From: Branchiostoma floridae
Taxonomy: Eukaryota > Chordata > Leptocardii > Amphioxiformes > Branchiostomatidae
Assembly: GCF_000003815.2 (NCBI RefSeq)
Contig: NC_049980.1
Span: forward strand, 20,852,813-20,916,812
Reading direction: 5' to 3'
DNA: 64,000 nucleotides
The notes under the pieces were generated by a model. It saw only the letters and a list, made by a program, of their open reading frames with translations. It was not told the origin of the DNA and did no database searches. Within the stretch, counting starts at the first letter, position 1; each line of letters begins with the position of its first letter. A program made the position numbers and the translations under genes. This document shows, one piece after another, positions 14,082 to 64,000 of the stretch.

Positions 14082-14103
14082 TCAGTTCAGTTCAGTTCAG
14101 TTC
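14078..14103 (-). repeat. (TTCAG)n 3' tail of the LINE
   Basis: Five units of TTCAG on the plus strand (CTGAA on the element strand). The tail overlaps the last codons and stop of the RT frame, so the element has almost no 3' UTR. Short tandem-repeat tails of this kind are characteristic of RTE-type LINEs. Confidence 0.85.
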
Positions 14104-16161
14104 ATCCTTTTCTGGTGACGCTATGAAGTTCTTCCATACGACCCTGTCGCGCATGACAGACAGGAGGTCTCCGTCTTTGAGGCCAACATCTTCCTCAATC
14201 ACCCTCTTAAGGGTCAGGGATGGTCGGCCACGTCTTCTCTTCTCGTCGGGCCGCCAGAGACGAACCCTACCGGCCATCTCGTCGTGACGCATCACATGAC
14301 CAGCAAGGGCCAGGCGTCGGTCGCGAATGACTCTAGTAATCCGTGGCAGACCGTTGTAAAGCTGTGTGTTAGAGGTGTGACTCTTCCAGTCAACATCCAA
14401 GGTGGCACGGAGAAGCCGGGTATAGTTCCCGTCGAGTTTCTTGCACAGGGTTTTAGTTAAAGACCAAGAGTCAGACCCGTAGAGCAAAATAGACTCAACA
14501 CTCGATTTGAAGACTTTGATCTTGGTGGTATTTTGAATTGGAGCCTTCCACACCTTCCTGAGGGAATGGGATGCTCCCCATGCTAGTCTGATACGGTGAC
14601 TGACGTCATGGGCTGAATTGGAGAAGCTTCCGAGATACTTAAAGTCGCTGACTTGCTCTATGACAGTTCCATCACTTGCTTTTAAGACCTGAGGGTCGAC
14701 AGGGGGGTTGATGTGCATGACCATGGTCTTAGACGCATTTAGGAGTAGACCAATCTCCTGGGTGGCAGACTCTACACGGTGTAGAAAGACTTGTGCAGCA
14801 CGGATAGTATCTTCAAGCAGGCAGATGTCATCCGCGAAGTCTAAATCCGGCAAAACCACAGCTGGGTGACGCGAGCTCTGTCTTCTCCTCAGAGTGAGGC
14901 CGTCGTTGGTATTGACAGCCTTGCGCAGTGCATAGTCCAATGCAACAATGAAGAGAAATGGGGCAAGGGGATCACCCTGCAGGACACCAGTATTGATGTT
15001 GAAGGTGTCAGTTTCACCTTCAGGGGTGAGGACTGTAGCGATGGTGTCGGCGTACATTACCCTGATTGCGTCGACTATAGGCGTGGGCACACCATAGGCT
15101 GCAAGGATCTTGAACATTGTGATGCGGTTGATCGAATCAAACGCCTTTTTGAAGTCGATGAAAATGAGCACTGCCTCTTTTTGGTGGTTCTGCACCTCTT
15201 CAACGATTCGGCGTAGGGCCAGGATTTGAGCTGACGTTGAGCGTGAGGGACGAAAGCCGTTCTGATTGGGGCGTAAGAGCTTATCAACAACTGGCCTAAT
15301 TCTGTTGAGCAGAAGGCGGTTGTACACTTTTGCGGCTATCTGAGTGAGGGATATGCCCCTGTAGTTGTCAGGAAGGGTAAGGTTTCCCTTCTTTGGGACT
15401 GGGACTATACCAGACAATCCCCACTCATCCGGCCTGTTTCCAGAAAGAGTTTGATTGCAAAAGTTGGTTAGGAACTGCCTAGCTTTGGGAAGTTGCCACA
15501 CTTCTAATGGCAGGCCGTCCAGTCCCGGGGCTTTTCCGGCTTTCATTTGCTTCAGAGCTATGTCAACTTCACCCTGAGTGAAGGGATCGCAGCTAATGTT
15601 GTAGTTAGTGTCAAATACTGGGGTGATCGGAACTCCAGTGGAGCTGGACTGAGGGACATCATTGTTAAGGAGCTTGGAGAAGTGATTTTTCCAGGTGTTG
15701 AGTCTGTCTTCTCCCTGGATAAAGATCACGCCTGATCTTTTACCAGATAGCTCGCGCACTAGCTTCCATGCTCTCAGATGCTCTGGGGCTGAGCTTGCTT
15801 CGAAAGTCTGAAGTGTCTTAATGATTCTATCTTCTTCACATCTATCGTAAGTCTTTTTAAGCTGGATCTGGGCAGTTTGAACATCTTTAGTGGACGAACG
15901 AAGGGTAGCCCGGCGTGCAATCGACACTTGAATGGTATCTACTGGATCAGGGTCACGAGGTGGTTTCCGTGGAAGCCTCTTGCTGCCTACTTTGTTACAG
16001 ATTTCTACAAAAGAAGAGTAGGATTTCTGCTGATCTGGTAGATTAGCATACGTATGGGCAATGTCATCATCAATTGTGCTTGCAAGCTCGTGGTCTTCTC
16101 TTAAAGCTCGCCAATACAACTTAGTGCGTGACATGGTTTTGGGCTTACGGACACGGACACA
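14082..16161 (-). mobile_element. 5'-truncated non-LTR retrotransposon (LINE, RTE-like)
   Basis: About 2.08 kb of LINE lies on the minus strand between two copies of a 12-bp direct repeat. Its 3' end, at the low coordinates, is a short pentanucleotide repeat rather than poly-A, with essentially no 3' UTR, as in RTE-type LINEs. The 5' end stops just downstream of where an apurinic-type endonuclease domain would end, so the endonuclease is missing. This is the usual 5' truncation from incomplete target-primed reverse transcription. The intact ORF and exact duplication suggest a fairly recent insertion. The clade is inferred from the tail and overall RT sequence and is not certain. Confidence 0.88.
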
Positions 16162-16194
16162 GACTTTTACAGTAGCTTGTAATTCTAAAGACAT
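14092..16194 (-). CDS. LINE reverse transcriptase, endonuclease domain lost
   Basis: A 700-codon open frame encoding a non-LTR reverse transcriptase. Visible landmarks are the fingers motif around residue 300 (NGFRPSRSTSAQ), motif A with its catalytic Asp near residue 348 (FIDFKKAFDS), the GVLQGDPLAPFLF block near 410, and the catalytic FADD box near 453. The C-terminal part (about 630-690) has GHVMRHDEMAGR and RRRGRPSLTLKR, typical of RTE/CR1-like ORF ends. Full-length ORFs of this kind are near 1000 residues with an N-terminal endonuclease, which is absent here. The ATG lies outside the element: residues 1-7 come from host flank, residues 8-11 from the target duplication, and element sequence starts at residue 12. 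The stop codon falls inside the terminal repeat. Probably not expressed as a functional transposition protein. Confidence 0.9.
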   Translation of the reverse strand: MSLELQATVKVCVRVRKPKTMSRTKLYWRALREDHELASTIDDDIAHTYANLPDQQKSYSSFVEICNKVGSKRLPRKPPRDPDPVDTIQVSIARRATLRSSTKDVQTAQIQLKKTYDRCEEDRIIKTLQTFEASSAPEHLRAWKLVRELSGKRSGVIFIQGEDRLNTWKNHFSKLLNNDVPQSSSTGVPITPVFDTNYNISCDPFTQGEVDIALKQMKAGKAPGLDGLPLEVWQLPKARQFLTNFCNQTLSGNRPDEWGLSGIVPVPKKGNLTLPDNYRGISLTQIAAKVYNRLLLNRIRPVVDKLLRPNQNGFRPSRSTSAQILALRRIVEEVQNHQKEAVLIFIDFKKAFDSINRITMFKILAAYGVPTPIVDAIRVMYADTIATVLTPEGETDTFNINTGVLQGDPLAPFLFIVALDYALRKAVNTNDGLTLRRRQSSRHPAVVLPDLDFADDICLLEDTIRAAQVFLHRVESATQEIGLLLNASKTMVMHINPPVDPQVLKASDGTVIEQVSDFKYLGSFSNSAHDVSHRIRLAWGASHSLRKVWKAPIQNTTKIKVFKSSVESILLYGSDSWSLTKTLCKKLDGNYTRLLRATLDVDWKSHTSNTQLYNGLPRITRVIRDRRLALAGHVMRHDEMAGRVRLWRPDEKRRRGRPSLTLKRVIEEDVGLKDGDLLSVMRDRVVWKNFIASPEKDELN
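16162..16173. repeat. Target-site duplication, right copy, of the LINE
   Basis: Exact second copy of the 12-bp sequence at 14070-14081, marking the truncated 5' end of the element. Confidence 0.85.
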
Positions 16195-18935
16195 TGAACG
16201 GTCAGCTTAGGTACTTAAAAAAAAGGCAGTCCATAACACCTGAGGATATTGCTATAGCAGCTGTTTGTACCATGCAGCAAAGACGATAGAACATTAAGGT
16301 TTCTGAAATGAGTTGGTGTAGAAGACTGATCGAAAGGAAACAAAGCATTGCACTTTTGTTGGGAACGTGTTTAGCTCTAGCAAGGTCTTAAAGGAGCCTC
16401 TGATCACAGTATGGAAACAGCTGTCGCAGATGAGGTACAGACTGTAAGACTATGAGAGAAAGTCTCAAAAGGCCTTTTAAGACTTTTACCATTTCAAGAA
16501 GCTTTCATTTTAAGAAGAAGGGCTGCTGGCGGTTTGTTTGATAGGATAAATGCACAGTGTCAGCTGGAAACCGCTCTGCTCATTGCACCGGAGGCGAGGT
16601 GAGGAATACACGCGCACTGCTCTAAACCATCAATGTAATGGACACATGTGTGGCTTCCTACGACAAATGTCAGCGAACTAAGCGCGAATCATATAGCTTT
16701 AGCAGATTTTTTAAACCGAAACGCTACTGCTGCCTGGTTTCCTCTCGACGACCTCAGAATTAATCGCATTCTCTGTGACACACAGTTGGGATTTTACTTG
16801 CCTCTTTGGTTGCTTTTTGAGTCAGAAATTCTGCTGGCGTTTTCTCTCAGGCTCTACCCTCCGCCCATACGATTGTGGTCGAACGTGATCAGCATAGACA
16901 GCAACGGCAAATTGGCCCGGGGGTAATGTGATGAGGCGCTCCTGGTAAACCCCAGGGATTCACCGACCACCGCCTGGCAATTAGTCCGCAAACACCGTCT
17001 TTGGAATTAATATTCTGCTGGTGGCGGCGGCGGGGAACGGGAGGTCTGTTTAAACCCCTCGCCCAGCTGAAAACGTACGGACTCCCAATTCGTCGCGAGC
17101 ATGTAAAGAAAACAAAAGAACATATTCTTCATCCAGAAACAACTGCTCTACACTAACAGCTTTGTATTTTTTACGTATTCTAGACAAAATCGAATCGTAG
17201 CGAAGCTAGTATCTTTCTGAAAAAGGAATATCTGGAAGAAAATTACAACTTAGGTATAAATGTGTAATAATCTATTTTTTTTCTTCTTTTTTTTACCACG
17301 CAGCAAAATATTGCCCAAAGTATATTCTGTATATTTGTGATACAAGGAACGTTCCTCGATGATCACAATACAAAGTATCATTTTTAAGTCGTATTCATTT
17401 TTCCAAATGAGGTTCAAAGTGCAGGCTGAGTTCTATCTATTTGATATTCTGGCGGTAATACAATATCAGATGTGGAATCGCATTGAAAAATTGAAAAAAA
17501 TAAATACATATCACCAATGAGGGGTAACACGAGACCAAATTAGCTCTTTGGATCTGTAACCACAGACCTACAATCATCTTCGGTTTTAGAATGTGAGTCA
17601 CAATAAGAAGGATAGCCCAGCGGTACCTTTGTTTGGTACAAGCCCACCAGCTGTGCTCTCATCAGTCTCTCGCGTTCCCCCATTATCTGATGCACGTCCT
17701 TTAGAGACGTATTATTTCGAGGGTCTCTTTGATATCGAGTTATGTCGAAATGAAGGTCGGACAGGCTGATTCTTCCGATTACGCGGGACCACTACTGACA
17801 GGATATTACGTTCATCTCGCCCTTTTGACCACAACGTGGGTGAATGTGAGGAGAATGGCCAAAGCTTAAAGCGCAATGAAGAAGAGAGCGTTACAGAAGT
17901 CGGTATGATATAGTGACGTCCACACGGCAGCTCACTCCGTGAAATACCCATTGAATGTCTAGGTATACTACCAATGATTTTAAGTACCTAGTGTAGCAAT
18001 GATATTTAAGGTATGACCATTGGGCTCAGTAAACTGATATGATGCACATATTTGTGTGACAGCCAAGCCGAGAGGAATTTTGTAGATTCTTATCGGACAT
18101 TTTCGACCCATTTTTAAGCAAACGTTGTCAGCCCTGTTTGTTATGTGCCAGTTATCTCCGTAGCTATAGATAGCCTGAGTGCCATCCTAGTTAGTTTTCG
18201 GCGGCTACATTCCCCTCGCTAACTAGTTGACTACCTGGGAGCCGAGGAAAATTAACTAGGACGTTACCCAAGCTATGGCAATGATAGCAAAAAGGCAACA
18301 TTCACTAGAAAGCTAACGCAAGCTTTGATAGGTTTAGAGCATCTTCCAGGTACAGGTAACGTGTGAAATACTCCATAGTAGTCCCTACTGTAGGATTATG
18401 ATATGTATAAACTGGCATAACTACTTCCTTTGTTTATCATATATGTGTTTGTAATAACCGTGAATACTGGTAAAATGGCGAGTGCCTTACTATAACCTCC
18501 CTACCCGGTTTGCAACGCAAGCTGGCGTGAAATATTTGGTAGTGCGTTAACTTCATATAATTGGCTAATTTGAATCAATCATTCTCTGTGACCCCCGGTT
18601 GACGGGACGAGGAGTAATGACTGATGGTGCGTGTCATCCGCCGGGAGGCCTGCAGACAAATCAACATGGAGGCAGAGATGATATTGGCTCCCTGCTCCCA
18701 CAGGCAGCGGCGGATTTAAAAGATGAAATCTCCCAGGGCACTAGCAGGATGTACATCATTGCTGCCGCGCTGGCTGAGGCTCACGGCCAGCAGCATATCT
18801 TCAAATGAGGCGATCTATATAACACTGGATTACATTATTTCTATGTTGCCCATCAAGCACTTTGAATGTAGCGAGGTGGTTCTTATATTGTCTTTTTACA
18901 CAATAATATATTATAACTAGAGTTCGGCGACCTCA
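16195..18935. other. Non-coding stretch, no gene recognised
   Basis: No coding sequence recognised. A GC-rich block around 16900-17060 with several AATTA/GTTTAAAC-like motifs and a second block at 18585-18810 stand out from AT-rich surroundings. Confidence 0.5.
18585..18810. promoter_or_regulatory. Candidate conserved non-coding block
   Basis: A compositionally distinct, non-repetitive block rich in CAG/GGCAG words and GATA/AATC-type core motifs, set between AT-rich flanks. It is open for 69 codons on the plus strand but shows no protein similarity that I recognise. Developmental genes such as ZNF608/609 often sit in gene deserts with regulatory blocks, which is the only reason for this call. 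Confidence 0.15.
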
Positions 18936-23775: not shown

Positions 23776-23830
23776 TTTCTGTTCTTTTGTTTTACTTTTA
23801 TCTGCTCACTCACTGCTTTACTTGCCTTTG
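23776..23830. repeat. 55-bp flanking direct repeat X, left copy
   Basis: These 55 bases recur without a mismatch at 31356-31410, exactly outside the YR retroelement. Sequence beyond both copies differs. The simplest reading is a target-site duplication made at insertion, but 55 bp is far longer than usual and YR elements are not known for target duplications. See findings. Confidence 0.9.
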
Positions 23831-24095
23831 AGACAAGAATTCAACTGACACACTTGGCATCTTTGGCGGAAAAACAGGTATATTGTCAAGATTGGCATAC
23901 AGAATGGAAAAAACATAGAATCATTACATAAATATGTATCATTCTCAATATTTGGCAACACGCCAAATGGTTACCATGACAACGGTTCCATATATCTCGT
24001 GAAAAGGTTTTTCGTATAAAGGTCACATGCCAATCATACAAGTTTACGAACATTATAAGATTTCCAACATAATTTGAGTACTGGTTTACCACCAC
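23831..24095 (-). repeat. Repeat Y, terminal copy (3' end of the YR element)
   Basis: 265 bp identical to 29784-30048. It lies about 1 kb downstream of the recombinase stop. It contains a perfect 7-bp inverted repeat with 5-bp spacer (ATTTGGC-AACAC-GCCAAAT, 23950-23968) and an RFX X-box-like palindrome GTTACCATGACAAC (23970-23983). Either could be a binding site, but neither role is shown. As a terminal repeat it probably supplies transcript-end and recombination-site functions. Confidence 0.9.
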
Positions 24096-25101
24096 TTAAA
24101 CGTTAAAAACGTTAAAAACAAGAAATGTTCAATAAACTGAAATGTGGCGAAGGTGAACAAACAAAACGTCTGAGCTAGTTTCTATACAACAGTCTGAAAC
24201 GACTTTTTAGGTGCGATGCTGAAATATTGACGTAATGCAAATGTTGCCTAGGATCTGTAGAGTATTGTAGGGTACGTTTAGAGAAAAATACTGGCATATT
24301 ATGAAAGTAACCTGAGCAGCATGGCTGTAACTTAGACTAACAGTGTCGATCGCTTTATTTATAAATCTAACTTCGTATCCTTGAGTATTGTAAACTATCT
24401 GTTTTTTCCCTATACAGCGTTAGCATAAAATTGTTTACCGTAAAGTGACATGGAGTGACACCTGGTAATACATTTCGCTACGGAGCAACGACAGAAAGAA
24501 AAGTTTCTATTGAGTTAGCATACATTTATGTGCTGTAGGGTAGTATGGAATTACGCAAGGTAATACATTCATAACTGGGAGACTACTCAGGGACTAAGAA
24601 TCAACAAATCTACTTATTATAAGAGTATAGCTATGCTATCCAGTTTGGTTTAGAAAACAAACAAACCTGTACTAGTCAGCTGTTATTATCAGAACTAAGG
24701 TAACTCACCGTATACCGGCATAAAAGCCGCACTGGCCAGGTGTTCAATACAGGCATGGAGCTAGCTATTGCTATCATAACCTTGAGCAGGGCACCCTAAA
24801 CGTTGTATTCCAATGTAGCTTGGTTTAGGATGCAAGCAGGGAACTTACTGTTGTTATCGAACTCTGGGTAACTCACCCTGTTCAAATGTTGTAGTTGATC
24901 AGACATATGGGTAACACACCATGTATCAAGGCTGTAGGGTAACTCACCCTATGTAGGGGTTTCAGTCTAAAGTTGATAATTCTTATTGGTGAGGTTGAGT
25001 AGGTATCAACCTATTGTGCCGTTAGCCGATTATACCCGTTTAAGGGTCTATTAGGGATCTTTTTCAGCTGTTCAAGTACGAACCAGGTGCCTTCTATGGA
25101 G
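24096..25101 (-). other. 3' non-coding region of the Gag-RT-YR cassette
   Basis: About 1 kb between the recombinase stop and terminal repeat Y, with no ORF. It has four copies of a GGTAACTCACC-like motif (24697, 24866, 24909 and 24937; the core GGGT...ACCC is itself a short inverted repeat) and a CGTTAAAAA repeat at 24100-24119. Confidence 0.6.
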
Positions 25102-25986
25102 TTAAGTGCGAATATATTTTTTAAATGCATCTGAGGCCCATCTCCCTAGTAGCCGAAGGTTCGAATCCGAAACCCCCTGCAAAGCTGCTTGCGTAGCAGC
25201 TCCAATTCGGAAGGAATGCGAGGTGTATTTTTGTGGATCGAGTTTGACTTGCAGGACACAGGCTCTTAATGCCTTGGCAAAGTTATCGCTGGTAACAGGG
25301 CAACCATCCCTACGTTGGAACAGGTACCCCGGGTTCCTTCCCCGTAGTTGGAGGTACTTAGCAAGGCTTACCACCGGGCAGTGCGGACTTTCTGGGTGTG
25401 GTTGGATCTGGATGGTGGATTGGGCTGAAGGACTGCTGTGTTTGTACGTCTTAAACTGTACCAAGAAGGAAGTTAGGCCACTATTAGAGTCCAGATTACC
25501 CCTGAGGTCCGCTAAGGTCAGAGTGTGTTGGGAAGAATTAGTTACCGTTACTTCGCTTATGCGAGCTAAAGAGTAGAACATAAACGTGAACATTGCCTCA
25601 TACAGGCACTGATTGTAGTACGTGGTCTTTATGAACTTCAAGGCATCAATCAATTGGGAAAGAATAGGAGGCGTTATGGGCAACCTTCCGTCGGGTACGT
25701 GGTTCTTTTGTATTGAGTGCATCAACTTGCGAACGACGAAAGTAGAAGTGGGGTCTTGTAGATTTTGGATTTTGTGAATGAAACCTATAGCTGAAAGTTT
25801 AGATGCTATCGACGCTGGGGCAAATCCCTTACTATGTAAGTAGGAAATAAACTGGCATACTATAGGCTCTGGAATAGGGGGCTTGATATTGGCTGTACAG
25901 TGGATTTCAAGGCTGAATTGACGGAAATGCTGCCACGCCAGGCGATAAGCTGAGATTGTAGAAGGTGCTAAGGATTGAACAAGCAA
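25102..25986 (-). CDS. Tyrosine recombinase of the YR retrotransposon
   Basis: Integrase of the lambda/Cre-like tyrosine recombinase fold, expected to insert a circular DNA copy of the element. The N-terminal core-binding-like part (about 1-110) includes LAPSTISAYRLAWQHF. The catalytic part shows Arg in SLARISEV (about 143), a candidate Lys in QFKTYKH (about 180), HSFRIGAAT giving the H-x-x-R pair (about 257), GRWASDAF, and the nucleophile Tyr in FKKYIRT (about 290) just before the stop. The catalytic set is therefore complete. The listed start codon is TTG, not ATG. The frame stays open upstream through QQLNRLVDN into the RT C-terminus, in the -1 frame relative to RT, so translation probably comes by frameshift or from a fused protein. 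The true N-terminus is uncertain. Confidence 0.92.
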   Translation of the reverse strand: MLVQSLAPSTISAYRLAWQHFRQFSLEIHCTANIKPPIPEPIVCQFISYLHSKGFAPASIASKLSAIGFIHKIQNLQDPTSTFVVRKLMHSIQKNHVPDGRLPITPPILSQLIDALKFIKTTYYNQCLYEAMFTFMFYSLARISEVTVTNSSQHTLTLADLRGNLDSNSGLTSFLVQFKTYKHSSPSAQSTIQIQPHPESPHCPVVSLAKYLQLRGRNPGYLFQRRDGCPVTSDNFAKALRACVLQVKLDPQKYTSHSFRIGAATQAALQGVSDSNLRLLGRWASDAFKKYIRT

Positions 25987-25994
25987 GTTGTCGA

Positions 25995-27539
25995 CTAGTC
26001 GATTAAGCTGCTGGGCAGGAGATGGGGAGGCACCCTGACCGGATGAGTTGCCATGTGTGGGTATTTCCTGCGGAACCGCTCTACCTGTAGGCGAGATAGA
26101 CAGTCAGCCATCGTGTTATGTGTTCCCGGTATGTGCTCAGCTCGACATCTAATATTTCGGCGGAGGCTTATAAGAACAAATCTTCGAACCAAGGGCATTA
26201 TCCTGGGGTTCCGTGACGTCTGTTTATTGATTATGTGCACCAGGGCAAGGTTGTCAGTGTGTAACAAAATACTTTGGTTCGCCCATTCCTTGCCCCAGAT
26301 ATGGAAAGCCAGCACAATTGGATAAAATTCTAATATTGTAATATTCGTCGAGTGTAGTGCCTGTGGCCAAGCTCCGTAAAGCCATTCTGTGCCATAAACT
26401 GCGCCATAACCTAACGATCCTGCTGCATCTGTATACAGGTTTAACGTGGAGTCCGTAGTAAATTGGTCGTCAACAAAGAAGGATTTTCCATTAAAGGTGT
26501 CAAGGAAATGACCCCACATTTGTAAGTCAAGCCTTACCCCACTGTTGATGTGAATAGGGCCTGTTTTGTATGTCCTATTCCTGGTTAGATCAATCAATCT
26601 TCTTAAGAAAGCGCGCCCTGGCACAACTACTTGACATACGTGATTGAGTAGTCCGACAAGGGACTGCACTTGTTTTAAGGAAACTGAGGAGCGCAGGAGG
26701 AATTCTTGAATAGTTTCTTTGCACTTTTGTAATTTGTCAATGGGCAATCTCGCCTCTATCAATCTTGTGTCGAGTTCTATGCCTAGAAATGACATAGTCG
26801 TATCTGGGTAGTAGGTTTTTTCCTCCGAAAGAGGAACCCCTACTTCCTGACACATATTGCTAAATGCTACCAAGTCTCGTTCGCAAGATGAGTATGCGTG
26901 GTTTGCGAACAAGAAATCGTCTAATATGTGGGTAGGGAAGCGTATATTGAGTTTGTTTACCGCTATCCACTCAAGGGCCGAACTAATAGCCTCAAAAATT
27001 GAACAAGATATTGAAGCTCCCATTGGCAGGCATCGATCATAATAGAAACCATTGTCTAAATAGAATCCTAATAGGTGGTGGTCGTTAGGATGTATGGGGA
27101 CAATACGAAAGGCTGATTCCACATCCGTTTTTGCTAGAAAACATCCTGGTCCTAGCAATTTTATGTGTCGGATAGCATTGTCTATATTGGCATAAGAAAC
27201 CGAGGATAGCTCTTTAGGAATACCGTTATTCACTGCTTTCCCCGGGGGATGCGACAAGTCATGTATTATCCGATACTTTCCTGGGGCTTTTTTGGGAACC
27301 GCATAAATGGGAGAAATGAATAGGTTCGGAAATGGTTTATCTGCGAATGGACCCACTATACGTCCTTGTTCCAGTTCAGACTGAAGTTTCTCAAAAATAA
27401 TTGGAAGTTGTGCTGGATTGGGGGACATGACTTTGGAAGGAAAGTAATTTCGAGGTCCAAAATACTCCAATGGAAATCCATAGGTAAAGCCTTTGATGAT
27501 GTAATCTTTTTCCCTGTCGGGGTACCCTTCTAGAAACAA
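25995..27539 (-). CDS. Reverse transcriptase / RNase H of the YR retrotransposon
   Basis: DIRS/Ngaro-type polymerase that would copy element RNA to DNA. From N to C: a LEGYPDRE...GFTYGFPLEY region, RT motifs YAVPKKAPGKYRIIHDLS and FLAKTDVESAFR (catalytic Asp), LPMGAS, and the catalytic HILDDFLF box (about 206). RNase H follows, with LYTDAAGSLGYGAVYG (about 368), ILEFYPIVLA (Glu), LLHTDNLALV (about 430) and NTMADCLSR (about 480), so the D-E-D-D set is present. No protease domain is visible. The start shown is TTG. The same frame is open about 60 codons further upstream, overlapping the end of Gag in the +1 frame and including TPVIAKKLSLFLEGYPD, so RT is most likely made by frameshifting from Gag. 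It overlaps the recombinase frame at its 3' end. Confidence 0.93.
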   Translation of the reverse strand: MFLEGYPDREKDYIIKGFTYGFPLEYFGPRNYFPSKVMSPNPAQLPIIFEKLQSELEQGRIVGPFADKPFPNLFISPIYAVPKKAPGKYRIIHDLSHPPGKAVNNGIPKELSSVSYANIDNAIRHIKLLGPGCFLAKTDVESAFRIVPIHPNDHHLLGFYLDNGFYYDRCLPMGASISCSIFEAISSALEWIAVNKLNIRFPTHILDDFLFANHAYSSCERDLVAFSNMCQEVGVPLSEEKTYYPDTTMSFLGIELDTRLIEARLPIDKLQKCKETIQEFLLRSSVSLKQVQSLVGLLNHVCQVVVPGRAFLRRLIDLTRNRTYKTGPIHINSGVRLDLQMWGHFLDTFNGKSFFVDDQFTTDSTLNLYTDAAGSLGYGAVYGTEWLYGAWPQALHSTNITILEFYPIVLAFHIWGKEWANQSILLHTDNLALVHIINKQTSRNPRIMPLVRRFVLISLRRNIRCRAEHIPGTHNTMADCLSRLQVERFRRKYPHMATHPVRVPPHLLPSSLID

Positions 27540-27549
27540 ACTAAGCTTC

Positions 27550-28761
27550 TTAGCGATTACGGGTGTTGTTATTTCTGAGCTGAGCCTTCTTGGGGCAGTT
27601 GGGCTCCTTGTGTGGCCCTGAACAGGTGGGGCAGGAGTGCTTGTAAGGGCAACCTGTCGTGGAGCACTGGCCTCCGGGGAGGTGATATTGAAAGCAGTAG
27701 CCTCTGGGTATTTTGTTGGTCTTGGGAAAGGAGGGCTTGGGGGAAGAAGATGCTATAGCTAGTGCCAAGCTACTGAAGGCATCAACGTACAGCTGCGGAT
27801 GTGGGACATCCCATGGTAGGTTTGGGTTGATCTGTCTTAGCTGTCTGAAGTACATATCGTACTTACCCCACTGCGCACCTCGGTCTGCCATGGATCGGAT
27901 CAAGTACCCGTAAGAGATTAACTGGGTACTGCGCAGAACATGCTTCTGGACATAGATATACTGGTAAATCGCGAATGCGTTTGACCATTGTGCTAAGGAA
28001 AGGGAGTTCTTACTGTCCTCTACATTGTTTGCCACCGTCAAAGTTGGGAGTCCTGCTAATGGTTCCAGGTTGATGTTGAATTGCGCTTTGGGACGATGAG
28101 TTGGCAATAAGTGTTTGAATTCCACATATTTATCTAGCCAAATTTTCTCCTTCGTTGGTTCTGGTATTCCAGTGTCCAGAGGTAAGTGAACTCCCGTTTT
28201 ATAGAGCTCACCGCTAAGGACAGATTCTATGGCAGGAGTCCCAACTACTGACGCTGGTTGGTTAAGAGCGGAGGCATTAACTGTCTTAGTAAGAGAGGAT
28301 GTACCTAGAATGCTGGAAGCCAGGGTCGAGCCTAGGCCTGGCATCTGGGCGTTTGGGTTGATGGACGGAAGAGATGGGGGCTGAGGATCCAGTGCCCCAC
28401 TTGTGGTAGCTATTGGCAACACGCCAGGGGTATCGGTTACATGGGTTACAGTCACTGAGCTAGGAGAGGTGTTAAGACCTACAAGTCCTGCTGACCCTCC
28501 GTCTGTTGGTAACGCACCTGGAGTCTGGGGGTCACTGGAATTTGTAGAGTTCAGTTTGTTCGCTATCTGCGTAGTAACTTGTTGCAAGTCCTCTAGTTGC
28601 TTTTGTAGAAACTTCATTGTCAGCTTGGGTTTATCCGGAGCCTTGCGAGTAGGTTGCGGGGGTGCATCCTCTGGAGATGGCTGATCTCCTCGCTCCGTCG
28701 GGGACGGATCATCCCCGGCTTCCGGCCTCGCTGCTTTGCGTGCCTTCTTCCTTGGAGGCAT
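27550..28761 (-). CDS. Gag-like protein of the YR retrotransposon
   Basis: A 403-residue structural protein, expected to package element RNA. It starts at an ATG followed by a basic PPRKKARKAARP segment that could be a nuclear-localisation signal. A Pro-rich acidic stretch comes next, then a probable short coiled coil (about 47-72, MKFLQKQLEDLQQVTTQIAN), a low-complexity Ser/Thr/Pro linker to about 180, and a helical capsid-like region (about 190-345) with YGYLIRSMADRGAQWGKYD. The C-terminus holds a CCCH-type cluster (C-x9-C-x4-C-x3-H, from about 357) followed by a zinc knuckle C-x2-C-x3-H-x4-C, as in other DIRS/Ngaro Gag proteins. It ends in TAA, with the RT frame already open in +1. The long leader upstream carries the palindrome array and repeat Z1. 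Confidence 0.85.
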   Translation of the reverse strand: MPPRKKARKAARPEAGDDPSPTERGDQPSPEDAPPQPTRKAPDKPKLTMKFLQKQLEDLQQVTTQIANKLNSTNSSDPQTPGALPTDGGSAGLVGLNTSPSSVTVTHVTDTPGVLPIATTSGALDPQPPSLPSINPNAQMPGLGSTLASSILGTSSLTKTVNASALNQPASVVGTPAIESVLSGELYKTGVHLPLDTGIPEPTKEKIWLDKYVEFKHLLPTHRPKAQFNINLEPLAGLPTLTVANNVEDSKNSLSLAQWSNAFAIYQYIYVQKHVLRSTQLISYGYLIRSMADRGAQWGKYDMYFRQLRQINPNLPWDVPHPQLYVDAFSSLALAIASSSPKPSFPKTNKIPRGYCFQYHLPGGQCSTTGCPYKHSCPTCSGPHKEPNCPKKAQLRNNNTRNR

Positions 28762-28995
28762 TACTGGGGCTCGACAATAGTAAAGCGTTAAGACAGTGAG
28801 CAGAGTAATACATCAGGACAAATTTTGTATGCATGATGACACATTCCTAGTTATATCGATTGTATTGGAGTGTCATGCCGGGTATCTGAGAAATGCGGTA
28901 TAACGGTGAAAAAGCAAACCGTCAGATACAAAGGTTATTTAAGTCACTGTGGTTCTTGGACAACCCGCCCCGACAAAGCCATGCACCAAATAAAT

Positions 28996-29326
28996 CACAT
29001 GTACGGACAGGTACAGTAACGGTACCCCGACAAAATCATGTGATAAAACAAGCAGTTACTTGTGAACCACGCATGTACGGACAGGTACCCTGTTAGTACC
29101 CCGACAAAGTCATGCGTTAAATAATCACATGTACGGACAGGTACCCGGCCCGTACCCCGACAAGATCATGTGAATCAAACAATTGCTTGTGAACAAAGAT
29201 CATGTGATATAAACAAGCAATTGACGCATGTACGGACAGGTATCTTCCTAGTACCCCGACAAAATCATGCGTAAATAGCCACAAGTATGGACAGGTACAC
29301 TAAACGGTACCTGGACAAAGTGATAT
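28996..29326 (-). repeat. Array of 47-bp palindromic repeats in the Gag leader
   Basis: Five units of 47 bp: 28996-29042, 29070-29116, 29126-29172, 29225-29271 and a weaker 29280-29326. A decayed sixth half ends near 28986. Each has outer arms (CACATG...CATGTG or CGCATG...CATGCG), an inner pair GGTAC...GTACC, and GGACA/CCGACA motifs between. Arm types alternate and change together on both sides. Units form dimers joined by 8-10 nt AT-rich linkers. The array lies between repeat Z1 and the Gag start, so it would be 5' leader RNA or a DNA site. Function unknown. Confidence 0.9.
29180..29223. repeat. 11-bp perfect inverted repeat between palindrome dimers
   Basis: CAATTGCTTGT (29180-29190) and ACAAGCAATTG (29213-29223) are perfect reverse complements around a 22-nt loop containing CATGTG. 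A related CAAGCAGTTACTTGTG sits in the spacer at 29049-29064. Confidence 0.8.
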
Positions 29327-29568
29327 GTATACCAACATCTGTTTGGGAACAGACATTGATATTAGTCCAACGACTTTCCTATAAATTGATATCCACATGA
29401 AGGTACATCTGCGGTATTGTTTGTTGTGAATTTGAATTATGCGTAAACTTTGAATGAAGATCTGAAATTTGTGCTTGAGTACATATAGGTGAAATGAAAA
29501 ACAAAGCACAAAAGAAAGGCAACAAATGTTGTCGACGTTCTGGCTTTTCTATAGGGGTTGGGTGTGGG

Positions 29569-29729
29569 GGGAAATGCAAACACAGCCGCTCAGTAAACGG
29601 CGTGTTTTGACTGACCTGTCAAGCTCAGAACATATTCCCGCCTTTCCTCGTAGCCAATGGGAATCGAATGAACACGTGAACAGGGCATGGTGACTGGGAA
29701 CGTCTCCGAATCCGGCTTAAGCTGTATTT
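29569..29729 (-). repeat. Repeat Z, internal copy (likely promoter of the Gag cassette)
   Basis: 161 bp identical to 31198-31358. On the coding (minus) strand it carries, in order, an E-box CACGTG (29673-29678), an inverted CCAAT box (29654-29658) and GGCGGGAA, a good E2F-type site (29635-29642). This arrangement and its position about 0.8 kb upstream of Gag make it a likely promoter, which is an inference. Confidence 0.85.
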
Positions 29730-29783
29730 TCATTTCATGAAAAGCCCCTTATGCCTACTTCTCCGACCGATATAAGGACAGGG
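29730..29783. other. 54-nt spacer J between Z1 and Y'
   Basis: Single-copy sequence in the internal junction Z1-J-Y'. It has no similarity to the 55-bp flanking repeat X but is almost the same length as the X segment that would separate Z2 from Y in an excised circle (52 nt). It may be a relic of an earlier host site. Confidence 0.6.
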
Positions 29784-30048
29784 AGACAAGAATTCAACTG
29801 ACACACTTGGCATCTTTGGCGGAAAAACAGGTATATTGTCAAGATTGGCATACAGAATGGAAAAAACATAGAATCATTACATAAATATGTATCATTCTCA
29901 ATATTTGGCAACACGCCAAATGGTTACCATGACAACGGTTCCATATATCTCGTGAAAAGGTTTTTCGTATAAAGGTCACATGCCAATCATACAAGTTTAC
30001 GAACATTATAAGATTTCCAACATAATTTGAGTACTGGTTTACCACCAC
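29784..30048 (-). repeat. Repeat Y', internal copy (end of the SGNH cassette)
   Basis: 265 bp identical to 23831-24095, including the ATTTGGC/GCCAAAT inverted repeat (29903-29921) and the X-box-like motif (29923-29936). It lies about 310 bp downstream of the SGNH stop. The intervening 30049-30359 is ORF-free 3' non-coding sequence. Confidence 0.9.
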
Positions 30049-30359
30049 CAAAAGCCATCGCGCCTAACAAGTGGCAGGGGAAATCTGACTGCAAAACCCT
30101 CCTGTCTATTAGTCCGCCAAAGAGCCAATCAGGCAATAAGGGGCTAAGAAGTGTAGGGTGAGGGAATGTAAATGAATAGCCTTGCTTTCTGACTGATAAA
30201 CGAGTATTAAAACATTTGAAGATTTCGTTAGTTTTCAAAAATGTCGCCAAATATCAAGTTACTTTTGTTCTACTCACCGCGTGTTGAGGGGCCAGGGCGA
30301 GGGGGGTGGGGGGTGATTCAATGTATAAATGTCCAATTGAAAATGTATTTTAGAGGGAA

Positions 30360-30956
30360 TTAAATGCCCTTTGTTGCTGTTAAGGCCCCCCTGATGGACT
30401 TGAAGTGAAGATACATCCCGTAAGGGGACAGGTGGTGTCCGTCTTTTGCAAAATATTCTGGGCAATGCCTATTAACAAGGCGGACATGTGCCCATGTAGA
30501 CATGTGAGGAGTGTTGGCCACCTCATGTCTCAAAGCGTCAAGGTACCTACCTAGGCACTGATTGTACGGTATGTTTGGTGGGTTAAATACCCGTGGGAGA
30601 GGTTCTCCAACAATGATATGTCTGGCATTAGCCCGGTTTCTGATTACACTTGCCATACCAACTATGCGTAAAGCCACTATCTCAGGCTCCCAGAAGAGCT
30701 CACACAGATCATTGGACCCTAACTCAAGGTAGACATCATCCACGGTTGGCAGGGCCTTACACATTTGGTCGAAGTTCGAAACTTTGCCGCCAGACAAGGA
30801 CATCCATTTTACATCGGTGTTTTCCAACCAAAAATCTCTACTCACTACCCGGCCTGATGCTGATTCGGTTCTGCTTTCAACAAAAGCATCCAGTCTGCGT
30901 ATGAACGAGTGCCCTATGATTAGTATTCGTCTTTTTCTGTGACCAACTTCTGCCAT
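30360..30956 (-). CDS. SGNH/GDSL-like hydrolase carried by the retroelement
   Basis: A 198-residue single-domain protein of the SGNH hydrolase superfamily. Block I is ILIIGHSFIRRL with the nucleophile Ser (about 18), GHS replacing the usual GDS. The oxyanion Gly is probably in SLSGGKVSNF (about 55). Block III is LELGSNDL with the Asn (about 83). Block V is DGHHLSPYG with the Asp-x-x-His pair (about 171-174). All four signature residues are present, so it is probably catalytic; the substrate is unknown and an acyl ester is likely. There is no signal peptide, so it would be intracellular. The ATG has a good context (GACATGG). It sits in its own cassette bounded by Z2 and Y', upstream of the Gag cassette and on the same strand. 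Related domains occur in some Ngaro-like elements as I recall. Its role in transposition is not known. Confidence 0.85.
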   Translation of the reverse strand: MAEVGHRKRRILIIGHSFIRRLDAFVESRTESASGRVVSRDFWLENTDVKWMSLSGGKVSNFDQMCKALPTVDDVYLELGSNDLCELFWEPEIVALRIVGMASVIRNRANARHIIVGEPLPRVFNPPNIPYNQCLGRYLDALRHEVANTPHMSTWAHVRLVNRHCPEYFAKDGHHLSPYGMYLHFKSIRGALTATKGI

Positions 30957-31197
30957 GTCGTACTAAGAATCAAAAGCAACGCCTACTGTAAGAGTTTAGC
31001 AACAAGAGAACAACCGAACTTCTGGGGGCCCCGTCACAGCTGCACAAAGCAGCGACAAAAAACTGGAAATAGAGACGACTCACCGTCTTTGCCAGAGATT
31101 CCGACCGGGAATAATCAGTCAAGAGTGTAGTCTCAAAGCAGAATACAGAGGGGGCAGAAATTGCCAACGCAAAGGATGCCAGAACGGAAAATGCAAC

Positions 31198-31358
31198 GGG
31201 AAATGCAAACACAGCCGCTCAGTAAACGGCGTGTTTTGACTGACCTGTCAAGCTCAGAACATATTCCCGCCTTTCCTCGTAGCCAATGGGAATCGAATGA
31301 ACACGTGAACAGGGCATGGTGACTGGGAACGTCTCCGAATCCGGCTTAAGCTGTATTT
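31198..31358 (-). repeat. Repeat Z, terminal copy (5' end of the YR element)
   Basis: 161 bp identical to 29569-29729, with the same E-box (31302-31307), CCAAT (31283-31287) and E2F-like site (31264-31271). It is about 240 bp upstream of the SGNH start codon, so it is probably that ORF's promoter. Its last three T bases overlap repeat X. Confidence 0.85.
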
Positions 31359-31410
31359 CTGTTCTTTTGTTTTACTTTTATCTGCTCACTCACTGCTTTA
31401 CTTGCCTTTG
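31356..31410. repeat. 55-bp flanking direct repeat X, right copy
   Basis: Identical to 23776-23830 and directly outside repeat Z2. The predicted empty site is one copy of X joining the sequence before 23776 to that after 31410. Confidence 0.9.
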
Positions 31411-33215: not shown

Positions 33216-33224
33216 GCTTCCACC
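33216..33224. repeat. 9-bp target duplication of the 33225 MITE
   Basis: GCTTCCACC here and again at 33389-33397, immediately flanking perfect inverted repeats. Confidence 0.85.
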
Positions 33225-33388
33225 TAGCCTGGGTACCATCCGGATAGTAGTTCGCTCCTACGTTCGCTTCTGCTATCCACAGTGAAGCGACTGTATATAG
33301 TGTATAGTGAATGTCAGAGCTAGAAGCGACTGTATATAGTATATAATGAACGCCGGAGCGAACTACTTTCCGGATGGTACCCAGGCTA
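33225..33388. mobile_element. 164-bp MITE with 34-bp inverted repeats
   Basis: The left end TAGCCTGGGTACCATCCGGA and the reverse complement of the right end match at 33 of 34 positions. The centre has two direct copies of an AGAAGCGACTGTATATAGT-like segment. It has no ORF. The 9-bp target duplication suggests mobilisation by a Mutator-like or similar transposase, which is inferred from duplication length only. Confidence 0.85.
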
Positions 33389-33397
33389 GCTTCCACC

Positions 33398-60411: not shown

Positions 60412-60497
60412 GGGTGAGAAGCCGGGCGAGAGGGTGCAGGCTCCTCCTGCTGAGCTCGATGTGGGGGCCGGGGAAGCTCGGGAGTTCCTGAGGGAAG
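60412..60497 (+). other. 5' UTR part of the first coding exon
   Basis: Follows a plausible acceptor (TTTGCTCCCGTCCAG). It contains an in-frame TGA at 60489-60491 just before the ATG, so the coding frame cannot start further upstream. Confidence 0.5.
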
Positions 60498-61217
60498 ATG
60501 GCAGCAGTACTCGGGACCCAGGAACACGGCTTGTACGATAGCGGAGACGAGTGGGAAGTCGGGGTCGGCGACCTCATCATCGATTTGGACGCAGATTTGG
60601 AAAAAGATCGCCAGCGAGCCGAGGAGGAGAAAATTATGGTCCCACCTTCTCCTCAAAAGGTGGCCAACAACAAAAGTCCAGCTGCAGGAAAGGACATCAA
60701 AATGAAGGTGAAACGCAGCAAGGGAGTCAACGGGGCAAAAACATACAGTATAAGTGATCTAAATATAGGGAAGAAAGATGGAGATGCTCAGTACGATTTT
60801 GATGGGGCCGGTTCAAATTATTTCACACCTTCCAGTAAAACTGGAAAGGGTTCCTTGGGGGAGGAGAAATCAGGAAAATCGAACAAAGGGGGGAGTCATC
60901 ACAAAAGTAAAACCTCAGACAAAAGCAGCAGTAGTAGTGGGAGTGGGAAAGGATCATCTTCAAGTGGAGGATCCAATTCACACCAGGGGAGTTCGGATGT
61001 TGGTGGAGGTTCAGGTTGTGGCAGCGGCAACAGTGGAAACGATGGCCAGGACGGTAATGATAAGAACAGGAAAAAGGACGACAGGCCCTCGTCTTCCAAG
61101 GGAAAAGGTTCTGCATCTGAGAAAAGTGAGAAGAAAAAGGATACTGACAAGTCGGGTGAATCAGGATCTAGTGCCAAGACAAAGGGCAAGAAGAGCAAGG
61201 CAGACAAAGCTGAAAAG
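60498..61217 (+). CDS. ZNF608/ZNF609-family protein, N-terminal coding exon (partial)
   Basis: 240 codons of a much larger nuclear zinc-finger protein; later exons lie beyond the window. Residues about 13-36 ([20 protein letters not shown] then DLEKDRQ) match the N-terminal signature of vertebrate ZNF608 and ZNF609, proteins linked to transcriptional control and cohesin loading. The vertebrate form reads [20 protein letters not shown]. The rest is Ser/Gly/Lys-rich low complexity (about 115-240), as in the family, with many basic KSK/KKK clusters that would favour nuclear location. The ATG has a strong context (AAGATGG) and an in-frame stop 9 bases upstream. The exon ends GAAAAG|GTAAAT at 61217, a good donor in phase 0. 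The open frame runs a further 15 codons into the intron and should not be counted. The single C2H2 finger of the family is not in this exon. One ancestral gene is expected in invertebrates. Confidence 0.87.
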
Positions 61218-64000
61218 GTAAATGTTTCTGTTTTATGTTTAAATTTCTCTAACATGGCAACTTAAACTTAAAGCTTATGTGTTGAAATCAAGTCTGCTGC
61301 TTAACTACAGTCACATTTATGACAAAAAAAGAAACAGTGTTGGCTTTTGTCACCCAACACTTTGTGGACACCTGAAATGTGCCTTGTGAAGTGACTGTGA
61401 AGCCCAACAGTAAATAGATCAGGCCTTGGCTACACATGTAGGAGTACTCTGTGTACTCAAAATTTCCATCTGGTCAGTGTTTGGCTGAAATAATTCTTCA
61501 CTCCACAGGAAGGGACATTGTATTTTGTAACATTACACATGTATTTTGAGGGGGGCTAGCATTTCATTTGCTCAGATTAGATAGAATAGGTTTTGTTTTT
61601 TAAGTCCCTGGATTAATGCTTCAAATCATAGGTATCGCAGAAAAACAGGATATTGTTTGGATTGGATAAAGATATTCTGGATTGTTATCTGTTTGAGTGT
61701 TTCATACAGAAATATCCTTTACCCCGATTCTTTGGGGGTGTTGCAGCCCAAGAGTCTAGCAGTACACCACAGCTGGATATAATAAAGTATGCAGCCAGTA
61801 TTATGTAGCTATAGCATGCTCTGAAAACTCCAGCCCTGTGACAGCTGACCTTCTACACCTCCCTTGTTATGCAAACCTTGGAGTACAAACACATTAGTCA
61901 TTACTACTGGGCTGCTGATAAACAATGGCAGGCGAGCAAAAACTGGATTCTTCTGTCTCCTCCCCCCAAAAGTGCCCTAGTCCATTTCATTTCCCTACCT
62001 TAACAACAAACCCTACCTTACTCACAGTAACTCAATATTTCAACAGTTGTTATCCAGCACTCTGAAAAGATACATCTGCTCTGACCTTGTATAAGAGAAA
62101 AAACCTTGGCTGCCATTCTGGGTGCAAATAGCTGTGTTTGAAACCTGTAACAGCTGGGCAGAGGCCGCAGCTATCACAGGATGTAGGCTTTGTTTTTTCT
62201 GTGCAGATATAGGATATGGATAGAAAGTTCTGGTATGTCATCAGTGGTATTTTTCGCTTCACCCCACAGGAACTGTTGTCAATCAATGAAAGATAAGGAA
62301 CAGTGTCCTGAAATATATGAGCCCATTTTGTAGATAAGGAAAGGTGTGAAAGGGTCATTCACATGCCGCTATTGTTTGGTTTGAGTCTGGTAACTCAGAA
62401 ACAATGCGAAGCACACCTTTGTTGGTAGGTACAAGGAGAATGTCGTTTGTAACCGACCTACCCATACAGAAGTAGCAGTAGCCATTTGCATCATGTTACT
62501 AGTATGTTGATATATTGCACAAACCACTAGTATCAATAATCATGAATCCATGATAGTGTTTCTAGTCTCCCACTAGTCGCCTCTGTCCCCTCCCCGATCT
62601 ATTTATATTGAAATTTGAATTGTCATTTTTCATGTAGATCTATCTAAGGACTTCAACGTCCTTGCTTTATCCAAGGAGGTTAAAAAAGAACCTCCTTGCT
62701 TTATCAAATCAACCTCCTTGGTCAAATCTAGTTGAAACTGGTTGTTCTTCAGACAGAGTAAATGTAACACAGACCAATCTTTAAAAAAACAAACAACAAC
62801 ATTGTCTTCATCAAATTCTTGCTGTTGTGTTCTGCTGGCCTTTTCAATATACTACAGCTGTAAACTGGTTCCCCTGGTGGATGTCTGACCCCTGACCTCA
62901 AATGTGTACCCTGTGAAAGGAACCATGTTGTGTGCTCACCAACCAAAACAATGGTTCGAACAGAATTGTCCACCATTTGCTGAAATAACAACTGCCAGTA
63001 TGGGTTTGGGGAATCCTGAATCGTGACAATGTTTTTTTCAGGTCGTGATATACAAAATAAACAGCCAGTCACTGAACCACTCAGCCGCAAGACAAATCAG
63101 AGTCATGAATATACAGGATAGCATTGTGTGAAAAGTAGGGTTGGCAGTTATTTGTTAGTAGTGTAAGATATTTGGTCCAGACCCTGCAAATACATTATGT
63201 GTATTATTATTATATTCAGTACCATCATGGTAGAGTGCAAGAGGCTAATCATTGGTTCCCGTTGCAATCATGATCCCTGTAAAAGTGTAAGTAATAGTTG
63301 TTGTGATGTATTGACAGGGCTTGTTTAATGCTTTTCTGCTGAGCTTGCTTGGAAAGCTCCCAAAACCATCACTGATTTATTTTTATTACAGAAAGGAATT
63401 CAGTATACCTACATTACAGCTACATAACAGAACAAGAAAAACAATTACATAGTACACACATATTACAAAATATCCAAGCTTTATATGCCCCAAAAGTAAA
63501 GTCTACATTCTCTGGCCTAATGTTTTTTACCACTGGTAATTTGGAATACCCCATCACAGTGATCTTAACTACCTAAATAAATACAATGAAGTATTCATGA
63601 TGATACCCAGTTTTAGGATGAAATGTTTCAACATTCATTCATAATTTATCCTCTTATTAGATTATATTCTAGGTTGCATAAAAAACAACAGTCATGATTA
63701 AGAAGTTATCTTCATGTATTATAATCAGATTTTTCTCACAATGATTATAAGAAATTGAAACCATTTGTATATCACTGCCATCATGCAGGTGCATTATGAT
63801 TTGGTCCAACATGAATTTTGTGTGTAGTCATAGTTGTATGATATCCTGGTTTGTATCCTGGTATGTACAGGCTGTACTTGTGGTATTTTGTTGCCATGTT
63901 CTTTATACAAAATGCACTTTCAAATAGTACTACTTATGATAAGGTTTAAAGCACACTGCTAAAAGTGAATGGTTTTGTTCTGTGGGGGAAAGTCTAAATT
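61218..64000 (+). other. Intron 3' of the first ZNF608/609 coding exon
   Basis: Begins at GTAAAT and shows no further recognisable exon to the window end. The AT-rich sequence is consistent with a long intron. It contains a foldback at 62672-62698. Confidence 0.7.
62672..62698. repeat. 10-bp foldback (CAAGGAGGTT/AACCTCCTTG)
   Basis: Perfect 10-bp arms around a 7-nt loop, with a third AACCTCCTTGG at 62720-62730. Similar CAAGGAGGTT also occurs at 51017-51026, suggesting ends of an old MITE family. Confidence 0.6.

What the first reader, a model, noticed from the sequence alone, without database searches (positions are those of the whole stretch)
23776..31410. Two-cassette YR retrotransposon: both gene blocks carry the same start (Z) and end (Y) repeats
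In coding direction the element is Z2-SGNH-Y'-J-Z1-Gag-RT-YR-Y. Canonical Ngaro-type split direct repeats, as I know them, put all the pol genes in one segment and leave the A2-B2 segment short and non-coding. Here the hydrolase occupies one segment and Gag/RT/YR the other, each with its own complete set of ends. It resembles a bipartite genome fixed in tandem: two transcription units that could be replicated or recombined apart. All repeat pairs are identical (265 and 161 bp), so the layout is recent or gene-converted.
Basis: partly seen in the sequence, partly recalled or inferred. Interest (0 to 1): 0.82.

Follow-up and report, generated by a model that had tools for sequence, protein, structure and literature searches.

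The report
Two-cassette tyrosine-recombinase retrotransposon with hydrolase first
A family of jumping genes in this animal genome carries a separate hydrolase gene cassette in front of its own copying genes, each cassette bounded by the same pair of end repeats, and at least two related families share this unusual layout, so it is a stable variant of a known element type rather than an accident.

Summary
The layout is real and no chance tandem. On the minus strand the element reads A1-[SGNH hydrolase]-B1.A2-[Gag, RT/RNase H, YR]-B2. The genome search found 8 copies in this order and none in the textbook order A1-ORFs-B1A2-B2. Sister families with RT about 60-75% identical share it. In 17 of 68 RT loci a hydrolase lies upstream on the same strand; in one it lies 8 kb downstream of an RT fragment; in 50 none was found.

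Only the window copy has lost that end at its right terminus; a 51-bp copy of its left flank replaces it, mimicking a target duplication.

A sister family has one precise A-Gag-RT-YR-B copy and two candidates. No hydrolase-only copy was proven.

Best reading: a Ngaro-type element whose stored circle junction lies 5' of gag; a new variant of a known kind. A 2008 amphioxus paper noted one Ngaro-like element with a "distinct" repeat arrangement.

The parts
31198..31358 (-). [not shown]
   Evidence: 100% identical to A2; of 7 other copies 5 have the same AAA left end, 1 has altered first bases, 1 is truncated
30360..30956 (-). SGNH/GDSL-type hydrolase ORF, 198 aa, GHS / G / GSND / DGHH blocks
   Evidence: Pfam Lipase_GDSL_2 4e-6, below cut-off; all 4 aligned loci match it and keep S17, G56, N82, D83, D172, H175
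29730..30048 (-).
   Evidence: same 319 bp at the right end of 7 of 7 other copies
29569..29729 (-). [not shown]
   Evidence: the role is inferred
28968..29351 (-). leader between A2 and Gag with 4 imperfect ~52-bp palindromic repeats
   Evidence: family D3; the stretch is present in all 8 copies
27550..28761 (-). Gag-like ORF (first ATG at 28761), Cys/His-rich C-terminus
   Evidence: no Pfam match; relatives
25995..27752 (-). reverse transcriptase / RNase H ORF
   Evidence: RVT_1 8e-12, RVT_3 0.0035 (below cut-off), no methyltransferase match
25102..26103 (-). tyrosine recombinase ORF (HSFR ... KKYIR)
   Evidence: Phage_integrase 9.5e-6, below cut-off; phmmer to Cre family 5e-4
23830..24095 (-). 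B2 repeat, truncated: first 266 bp only, last 53 bp (J) missing
23776..23829 (-). copy of the left flank (51 bp plus AAA) standing in place of J at the right end
   Evidence: 55-bp perfect direct repeat with 31356-31410; absent in the 7 other copies
31359..31410 (-). left flank next to A1, taken as the original of that copied stretch

Best explanation
It is a Ngaro-type tyrosine-recombinase retrotransposon in which the internal B1.A2 junction (a stored copy of the circle junction) lies between a 5' hydrolase cassette and Gag-RT-YR, instead of after YR. Proposed working: A carries the promoter and the left end; B carries the right end. A transcript starting inside A1 and running through B1.A2 to the 3' end lacks the outermost bases of A1 and B2. 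Reverse transcription restores them from the intact B1.A2 copy. The recombinase then joins the B-AAA-A junction to a target AAA, without duplicating the target. A2 gives a second promoter in front of Gag-RT-YR. Shown: anatomy, copy number, constant order, AAA ends without target duplication, conservation in sister families, one precise single-cassette copy in one of them. Inferred: promoters, RNAs, priming, circle, hydrolase role.
For: All 16 A matches form 8 pairs, 1622-1630 bp apart, with the hydrolase between them; one of the 16 is a 30-bp remnant. A ninth, 5'-truncated copy shows only the end of RT and B2. Left ends read AAA-TACAGC in 6 of 8 copies. Right ends read ATGA-AAA in 7 of 8. The internal junction ATGA-AAA-TACAGC is intact in 8 of 8. 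No left-right flank repeat was found in 6 of 7 other copies; L015's right flank was too short to test. Loci L033 and L034 have complete A1-SGNH-B1A2-Gag-RT-YR-B2, and L036, L032 and L039 show parts of it. Hydrolase upstream of RT in 17 of 68 RT loci. CCAAT motifs lie in A in the 3 families where A was read. In one copy (L015) A1 starts 14 bases after the A of a TCAGTC initiator-like motif.
Against: No RNA, cDNA or protein data. A canonical poly(A) hexamer is absent from B in the window family, though present in B of three others. L010 and L011 share 36 bp of left flank, so at least one new copy kept host sequence outside A1, which a strict 'ends rebuilt from B1.A2' model does not predict. L031 lacks a stored junction. 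If the circle has two identical junctions, both permutations should arise, yet only one is seen. Several close RT relatives (for example C5:3.56M, C33, C8:8.85M) have no hydrolase match within 12 kb and were not read.
Confidence: 0.72

Rival explanations
1. Circular permutation origin: the ancestor was A1-Gag-RT-YR-B1A2-SGNH-B2. One circle integrated through its stored junction instead of its end junction, giving A-SGNH-BA-Gag-RT-YR-B, and that form bred true. This is an origin story compatible with the best explanation.
For: Both orders are the same circle; the observed order follows from one integration at the other junction (inference). In Xenopus Ngaro the hydrolase follows YR (PMC9210276, passages).
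Against: No copy with the reverse permutation among 8 window-family copies or among the 17 RT loci with a hydrolase close upstream. In Xenopus all reading frames overlap, so the hydrolase seems to precede B1A2 there and an intermediate is still missing.
Confidence: 0.4
2. Composite of two mobile units: a hydrolase cassette (A-SGNH-B) and an autonomous cassette (A-Gag-RT-YR-B) that can each move and are held in tandem, a segmented genome.
For: Each cassette has A at its start and B at its end in the complete copies. Precise single-cassette copy L031, and candidates at C6:21.75M and C8:0.40M, in the L033 family. L031's A is identical to that of L033 while the other two are 96% identical to it, which suggests at least two separate losses.
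Against: No proven hydrolase-only copy (L038 has a stop and no B or second A was recognised in the 2.3 kb read; L039 has A on both sides). No solo A or B in the window family. Recombination between A1 and A2 in place would also leave A-Gag-RT-YR-B.
Confidence: 0.15
3. Chance tandem insertion or assembly join at one locus.
For: The window copy does have an odd right end with a 55-bp duplicated flank.
Against: 8 of 8 copies, on five contigs, share the order, with flanks unrelated except for two pairs; divergent families share it.
Confidence: 0.01
4. The element makes ~55-bp target-site duplications (reading of the 55-bp outer repeat taken alone).
For: A perfect 55-bp repeat abuts both ends of the window copy, about as long as J.
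Against: None of 7 other copies has it. The 51 bp replace the 53-bp end of B in register with the AAA crossover, which fits branch migration and repair, or another copying event at integration.
Confidence: 0.03

Closest known systems
Ngaro retrotransposons with split direct repeats (Xenopus DIRS-53_XT; Cafeteria Ngaro types 1-4; DrNgaro1 by recall)
   Same: Gag, RT/RNase H, YR in this order, no methyltransferase match, A and B split direct repeats, some with an SGNH hydrolase ORF (PMC9210276, PMC8547959: passages seen).
   Different: Published order is A1-[ORFs]-B1A2B2 with the hydrolase after YR. Here B1A2 lies before gag and the hydrolase has its own A-B bounded cassette at the 5' end.
Ngaro-like element beside the amphioxus VCBP2/5 cluster (BMC Genetics 2008, PMC2632668, passages)
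   Same: Ngaro-like, three ORFs, split direct repeats whose arrangement the authors call distinct from other amphioxus and invertebrate copies.
   Different: The passages do not say what the arrangement is and mention no hydrolase.
PAT-like elements, nematode versus echinoderm form (PMC4157794, passages)
   Same: Precedent that the internal A2/B1 block can sit at different places in related elements.
   Different: DIRS group with methyltransferase; no hydrolase mentioned; the block is between MT and YR in the nematode form, not upstream of gag.
VIPER / SIRE of trypanosomes (PMC6681497, passages)
   Same: The A2-B2 segment of VIPER also exists as a separate unit (SIRE), like a single cassette.
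   Different: SIRE is the truncated A2-B2 piece; here the separate unit found is the Gag-RT-YR cassette.
DIRS1-like elements (PMC3266345, passages)
   Same: Three-base circular junction shared with the target, no target duplication.
   Different: Inverted terminal repeats and internal complementary regions instead of split direct repeats.

Membership tests
Ngaro | Gag, RT/RNase H and tyrosine recombinase ORFs on one strand | tested here: met
   Gag by position only
Ngaro | no methyltransferase domain | tested here: met
   no such Pfam match up to E 1 in 4 proteins
Ngaro | split direct repeats A1 ... B1A2 ... B2 | tested here: met
   all four repeats complete in 5 of 8 copies; A1 lacks its first 2 bases in L012, is truncated in L015, and B2 is truncated in the window copy
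Ngaro | internal B1A2 downstream of YR | tested here: not met
   B1A2 lies upstream of Gag in 8 of 8 copies and in L033, L034, L036
Ngaro | recombinase-type insertion, short shared junction, no target duplication | tested here: met
   AAA at right end of 7 of 8 and left end of 6 of 8; no flank duplication in 6 of 6 other copies testable; window copy aberrant
Ngaro | RT phylogeny inside the Ngaro clade | not tested
   no reference Ngaro proteins at hand
Ngaro of amphibians | SGNH hydrolase ORF after YR | tested here: not met
   ORF present but 5' of Gag
PAT / DIRS1-like | methyltransferase domain | tested here: not met

The most novel reading that the evidence does not exclude
A long-lived lineage of retrotransposons with a bipartite genome: two self-bounded cassettes (hydrolase; Gag-RT-YR) that share ends and promoters, travel as one two-junction molecule, and can segregate, the autonomous cassette being able to integrate alone.
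Probability: 0.2. Interest if true: 0.75.

Novelty: new variant of a known kind. Interest (0 to 1): 0.55.

Why it matters
How elements with split direct repeats replicate is inferred, not shown. Here the stored junction sits near the opposite end of the genome, and the copies show only one permutation: under equal use of two identical circle junctions, 8 of 8 would have a chance of 2 x (1/2)^8 = 0.008. That argues that the intermediate does not offer both junctions equally, which can be tested. The conserved hydrolase with its own cassette, and its absence from a single-cassette copy, make its role testable too.

Tried and rejected
Rejected: chance tandem or assembly join; 55-bp target duplication as a family rule; J as an independent spacer or coupling sequence (held until). 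C17:11.80M looked like a solo hydrolase cassette, but L036 shows A1-SGNH-B1A2-Gag, its further part lying in or beyond an assembly gap. C8:0.389M has no A at the usual place (L037); its single A lies 9.2 kb upstream of RT.

Led nowhere: scans of viral contigs and prokaryote genomes; PDB searches with the hydrolase; its single-sequence fold (mean pLDDT 42, not used). L035 (RT 39%, no hydrolase) has a 304-bp repeat before Gag and after YR but no second pair, so its class is open. In one search dS of the hydrolase between families could not be computed in 5 of 6 pairs by NG86 (saturated) and YN00 failed in all 6, so no selection estimate is claimed.

Not done: empty-site search, source of the 36-bp shared flank, neighbourhood of VCBP genes, B-repeat search in the L033 family (all unanswered), RT tree. 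The 14 flank stretches fetched were not analysed. Of 40 hydrolase loci without an RT match only 4 were read.
Full report
What is in the window. On the minus strand, between 31410 and 23776, lie in coding order: a 161-bp repeat (A1), a 198-aa SGNH-type hydrolase ORF, a repeat (B1), a second copy of A (A2), a leader with palindromic repeats, Gag, RT/RNase H, YR and a second copy of B. A1 and A2 are identical. The first 266 bp of the two B copies are identical. Pfam supports RT above its cut-off; the hydrolase and recombinase matches are significant but below the curated cut-offs. The recombinase also matches Cre-family chains weakly, including the HxxR and Tyr region. The hydrolase keeps the S, G, N and H blocks in the four loci aligned; the block names are from recall.

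The rest of the genome. The assembly holding the window (513 Mb, 431 contigs, no name given) answered 5 searches. The A repeat has 16 matches, which form 8 pairs 1622-1630 bp apart; one of the 16 is a 30-bp remnant. All 8 copies, on five contigs, have the hydrolase between the two A repeats and Gag-RT-YR after the second. The B repeat has 17 matches: two in each of the 8 copies, plus one in a ninth copy in which only the end of RT and B were matched. No solo A or B and no copy in textbook order was seen; the tool calls its counts lower bounds. Flanks of up to 0.95 kb are unrelated among copies apart from two pairs: 36 bp shared by two copies, and a local repeat in two others. Within-copy repeats differ at 2 of 1155 (A) and 4 of 2499 (B) positions, so the insertions are young. 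All four ORFs are uninterrupted in 4 of 8 copies; the hydrolase ORF is uninterrupted in 8 of 8 and its protein identical in 7 of 8.

What J and the 55-bp repeat are. In the 7 other copies the right end is Y followed by J, then AAA and host DNA. So J is the last 53 bp of a 319-bp B repeat, and B1 abuts A2 at ATGA-AAA-TACAGC. Left ends read AAA-TACAGC in 6 of 8 copies; one reads ATA there and one is truncated inside A. The other copies carry no target duplication (6 of 7 testable). The window copy alone lacks J at the right. In its place stands a 51-bp copy of the left flank, in register with the AAA crossover. I read this as a one-off exchange or repair during integration; an assembly error is not excluded. 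Two other oddities also point to imperfectly rebuilt ends: two copies share exactly 36 bp of left flank before diverging, and one copy starts at base 132 of A, 14 bases after the A of a TCAGTC motif.

Relatives. An RT search gave 77 matches, merged to 68 loci (75 of 283 candidates were scored). A hydrolase search gave 65 matches, merged to 58 loci. In 17 RT loci a hydrolase lies upstream on the same strand within 5 kb: 8 window-family copies and 9 others. In one it lies 8.1 kb downstream of an RT fragment, on the same strand; this was not read. In 50 RT loci none was found within 12 kb; many of these are about 30% identical to the query, but some are close relatives (for example C5:3.56M at 60%, C33 at 66%) and were not read. 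In 40 hydrolase loci no RT was found; of these I read four (L036, L038-L040). Of the relatives fetched, L033 and L034 have complete A1-SGNH-B1A2-Gag-RT-YR-B2 with 100% identical repeats. L036 has it up to an assembly gap, L032 has SGNH-B1 and B2 without a found A1, L039 has SGNH between two A-like repeats, and L040 shows no repeats of the kind tested in 2 kb. B ends in an inverted repeat next to the crossover (for example TTTTCAT-GAA-ATGAAAA and TTTTCGT-GAA-ACGAAAA); the pairing is read by eye.

Single cassettes. L031 is 99.5% identical to L033 over 5.7 kb, but begins with a single A and ends at B, with unrelated DNA on both sides: A-Gag-RT-YR-B with precise ends. The A repeat of that family has 21 matches: 5 pairs, 4 full-length singles and 7 partial matches. 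Besides L031, two singles have RT downstream and no hydrolase match (2.2 and 9.2 kb away; not fetched whole). The fourth is L038, A-SGNH with a stop and no second A in the 2.3 kb read. Loss by recombination between A1 and A2, and integration of a single-cassette molecule, both fit.

How it probably works. By the model for DIRS-1 (reviewed in PMC5633606, passages), the RNA lacks terminal bases, an internal copy restores them, and the recombinase integrates a circle. Here A has CCAAT motifs in three families and B has a poly(A)-type hexamer in three of four, not in the window family. These are short motifs and weak evidence. A read-through RNA from A1 would carry both cassettes and the intact B1.A2. 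A2 could drive Gag-RT-YR. The role of the hydrolase is unknown; conservation of its catalytic blocks across families suggests it is used.

Literature. Published Ngaro elements are A1-[ORFs]-B1A2B2, with the hydrolase of amphibians after YR (PMC8547959, PMC9210276; passages; also PMC3783388, passages). The internal block can move in PAT elements (PMC4157794, passages). PMC2632668 (passages) reports a Ngaro-like element at the amphioxus VCBP2/5 cluster whose split repeats are arranged differently from others, without details in the passages I saw. In the listings (20 of 35; 20 of 29; 9 of 9; 9 of 9; 25 of 61) I saw no title or abstract opening that describes a hydrolase cassette upstream of gag. 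Subscription papers, including Goodwin and Poulter 2004 (not held), were not seen, so novelty in print is not established.

Noticed in passing
L010 (C7) and L011 (C5), left flanks: Two insertions on different contigs share exactly 36 bp of host sequence just outside A1, then diverge; looks like carry-over of 5' flank from a source copy.
   Followed up: partly
L015 (C2:16.13M): A1 is truncated to its last 30 bp, starting 14 bases after the A of an initiator-like TCAGTC motif; YR carries an insertion of about 0.9 kb.
   Followed up: partly
window 28968-29351: Array of about 52-bp imperfect palindromic repeats in the leader between A2 and Gag; L033 and L034 also have tandem repeats between A2 and Gag, relation not tested.
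   Followed up: no
window 14092-16206, minus strand: 704-aa ORF with a reverse transcriptase domain (RVT_1 1e-35), probably a LINE.
   Followed up: partly
window 60492-61265, plus strand: 257-aa ORF without Pfam match; its start resembles ZNF608/609 proteins (recalled, not tested).
   Followed up: partly
window 33224-33389: Inverted repeat, 42-nt arms, 93% complementary, possibly a small transposon.
   Followed up: no
L013 left flank and L014 right flank: Related local repeats flank two insertions on opposite sides, a possible target preference.
   Followed up: no
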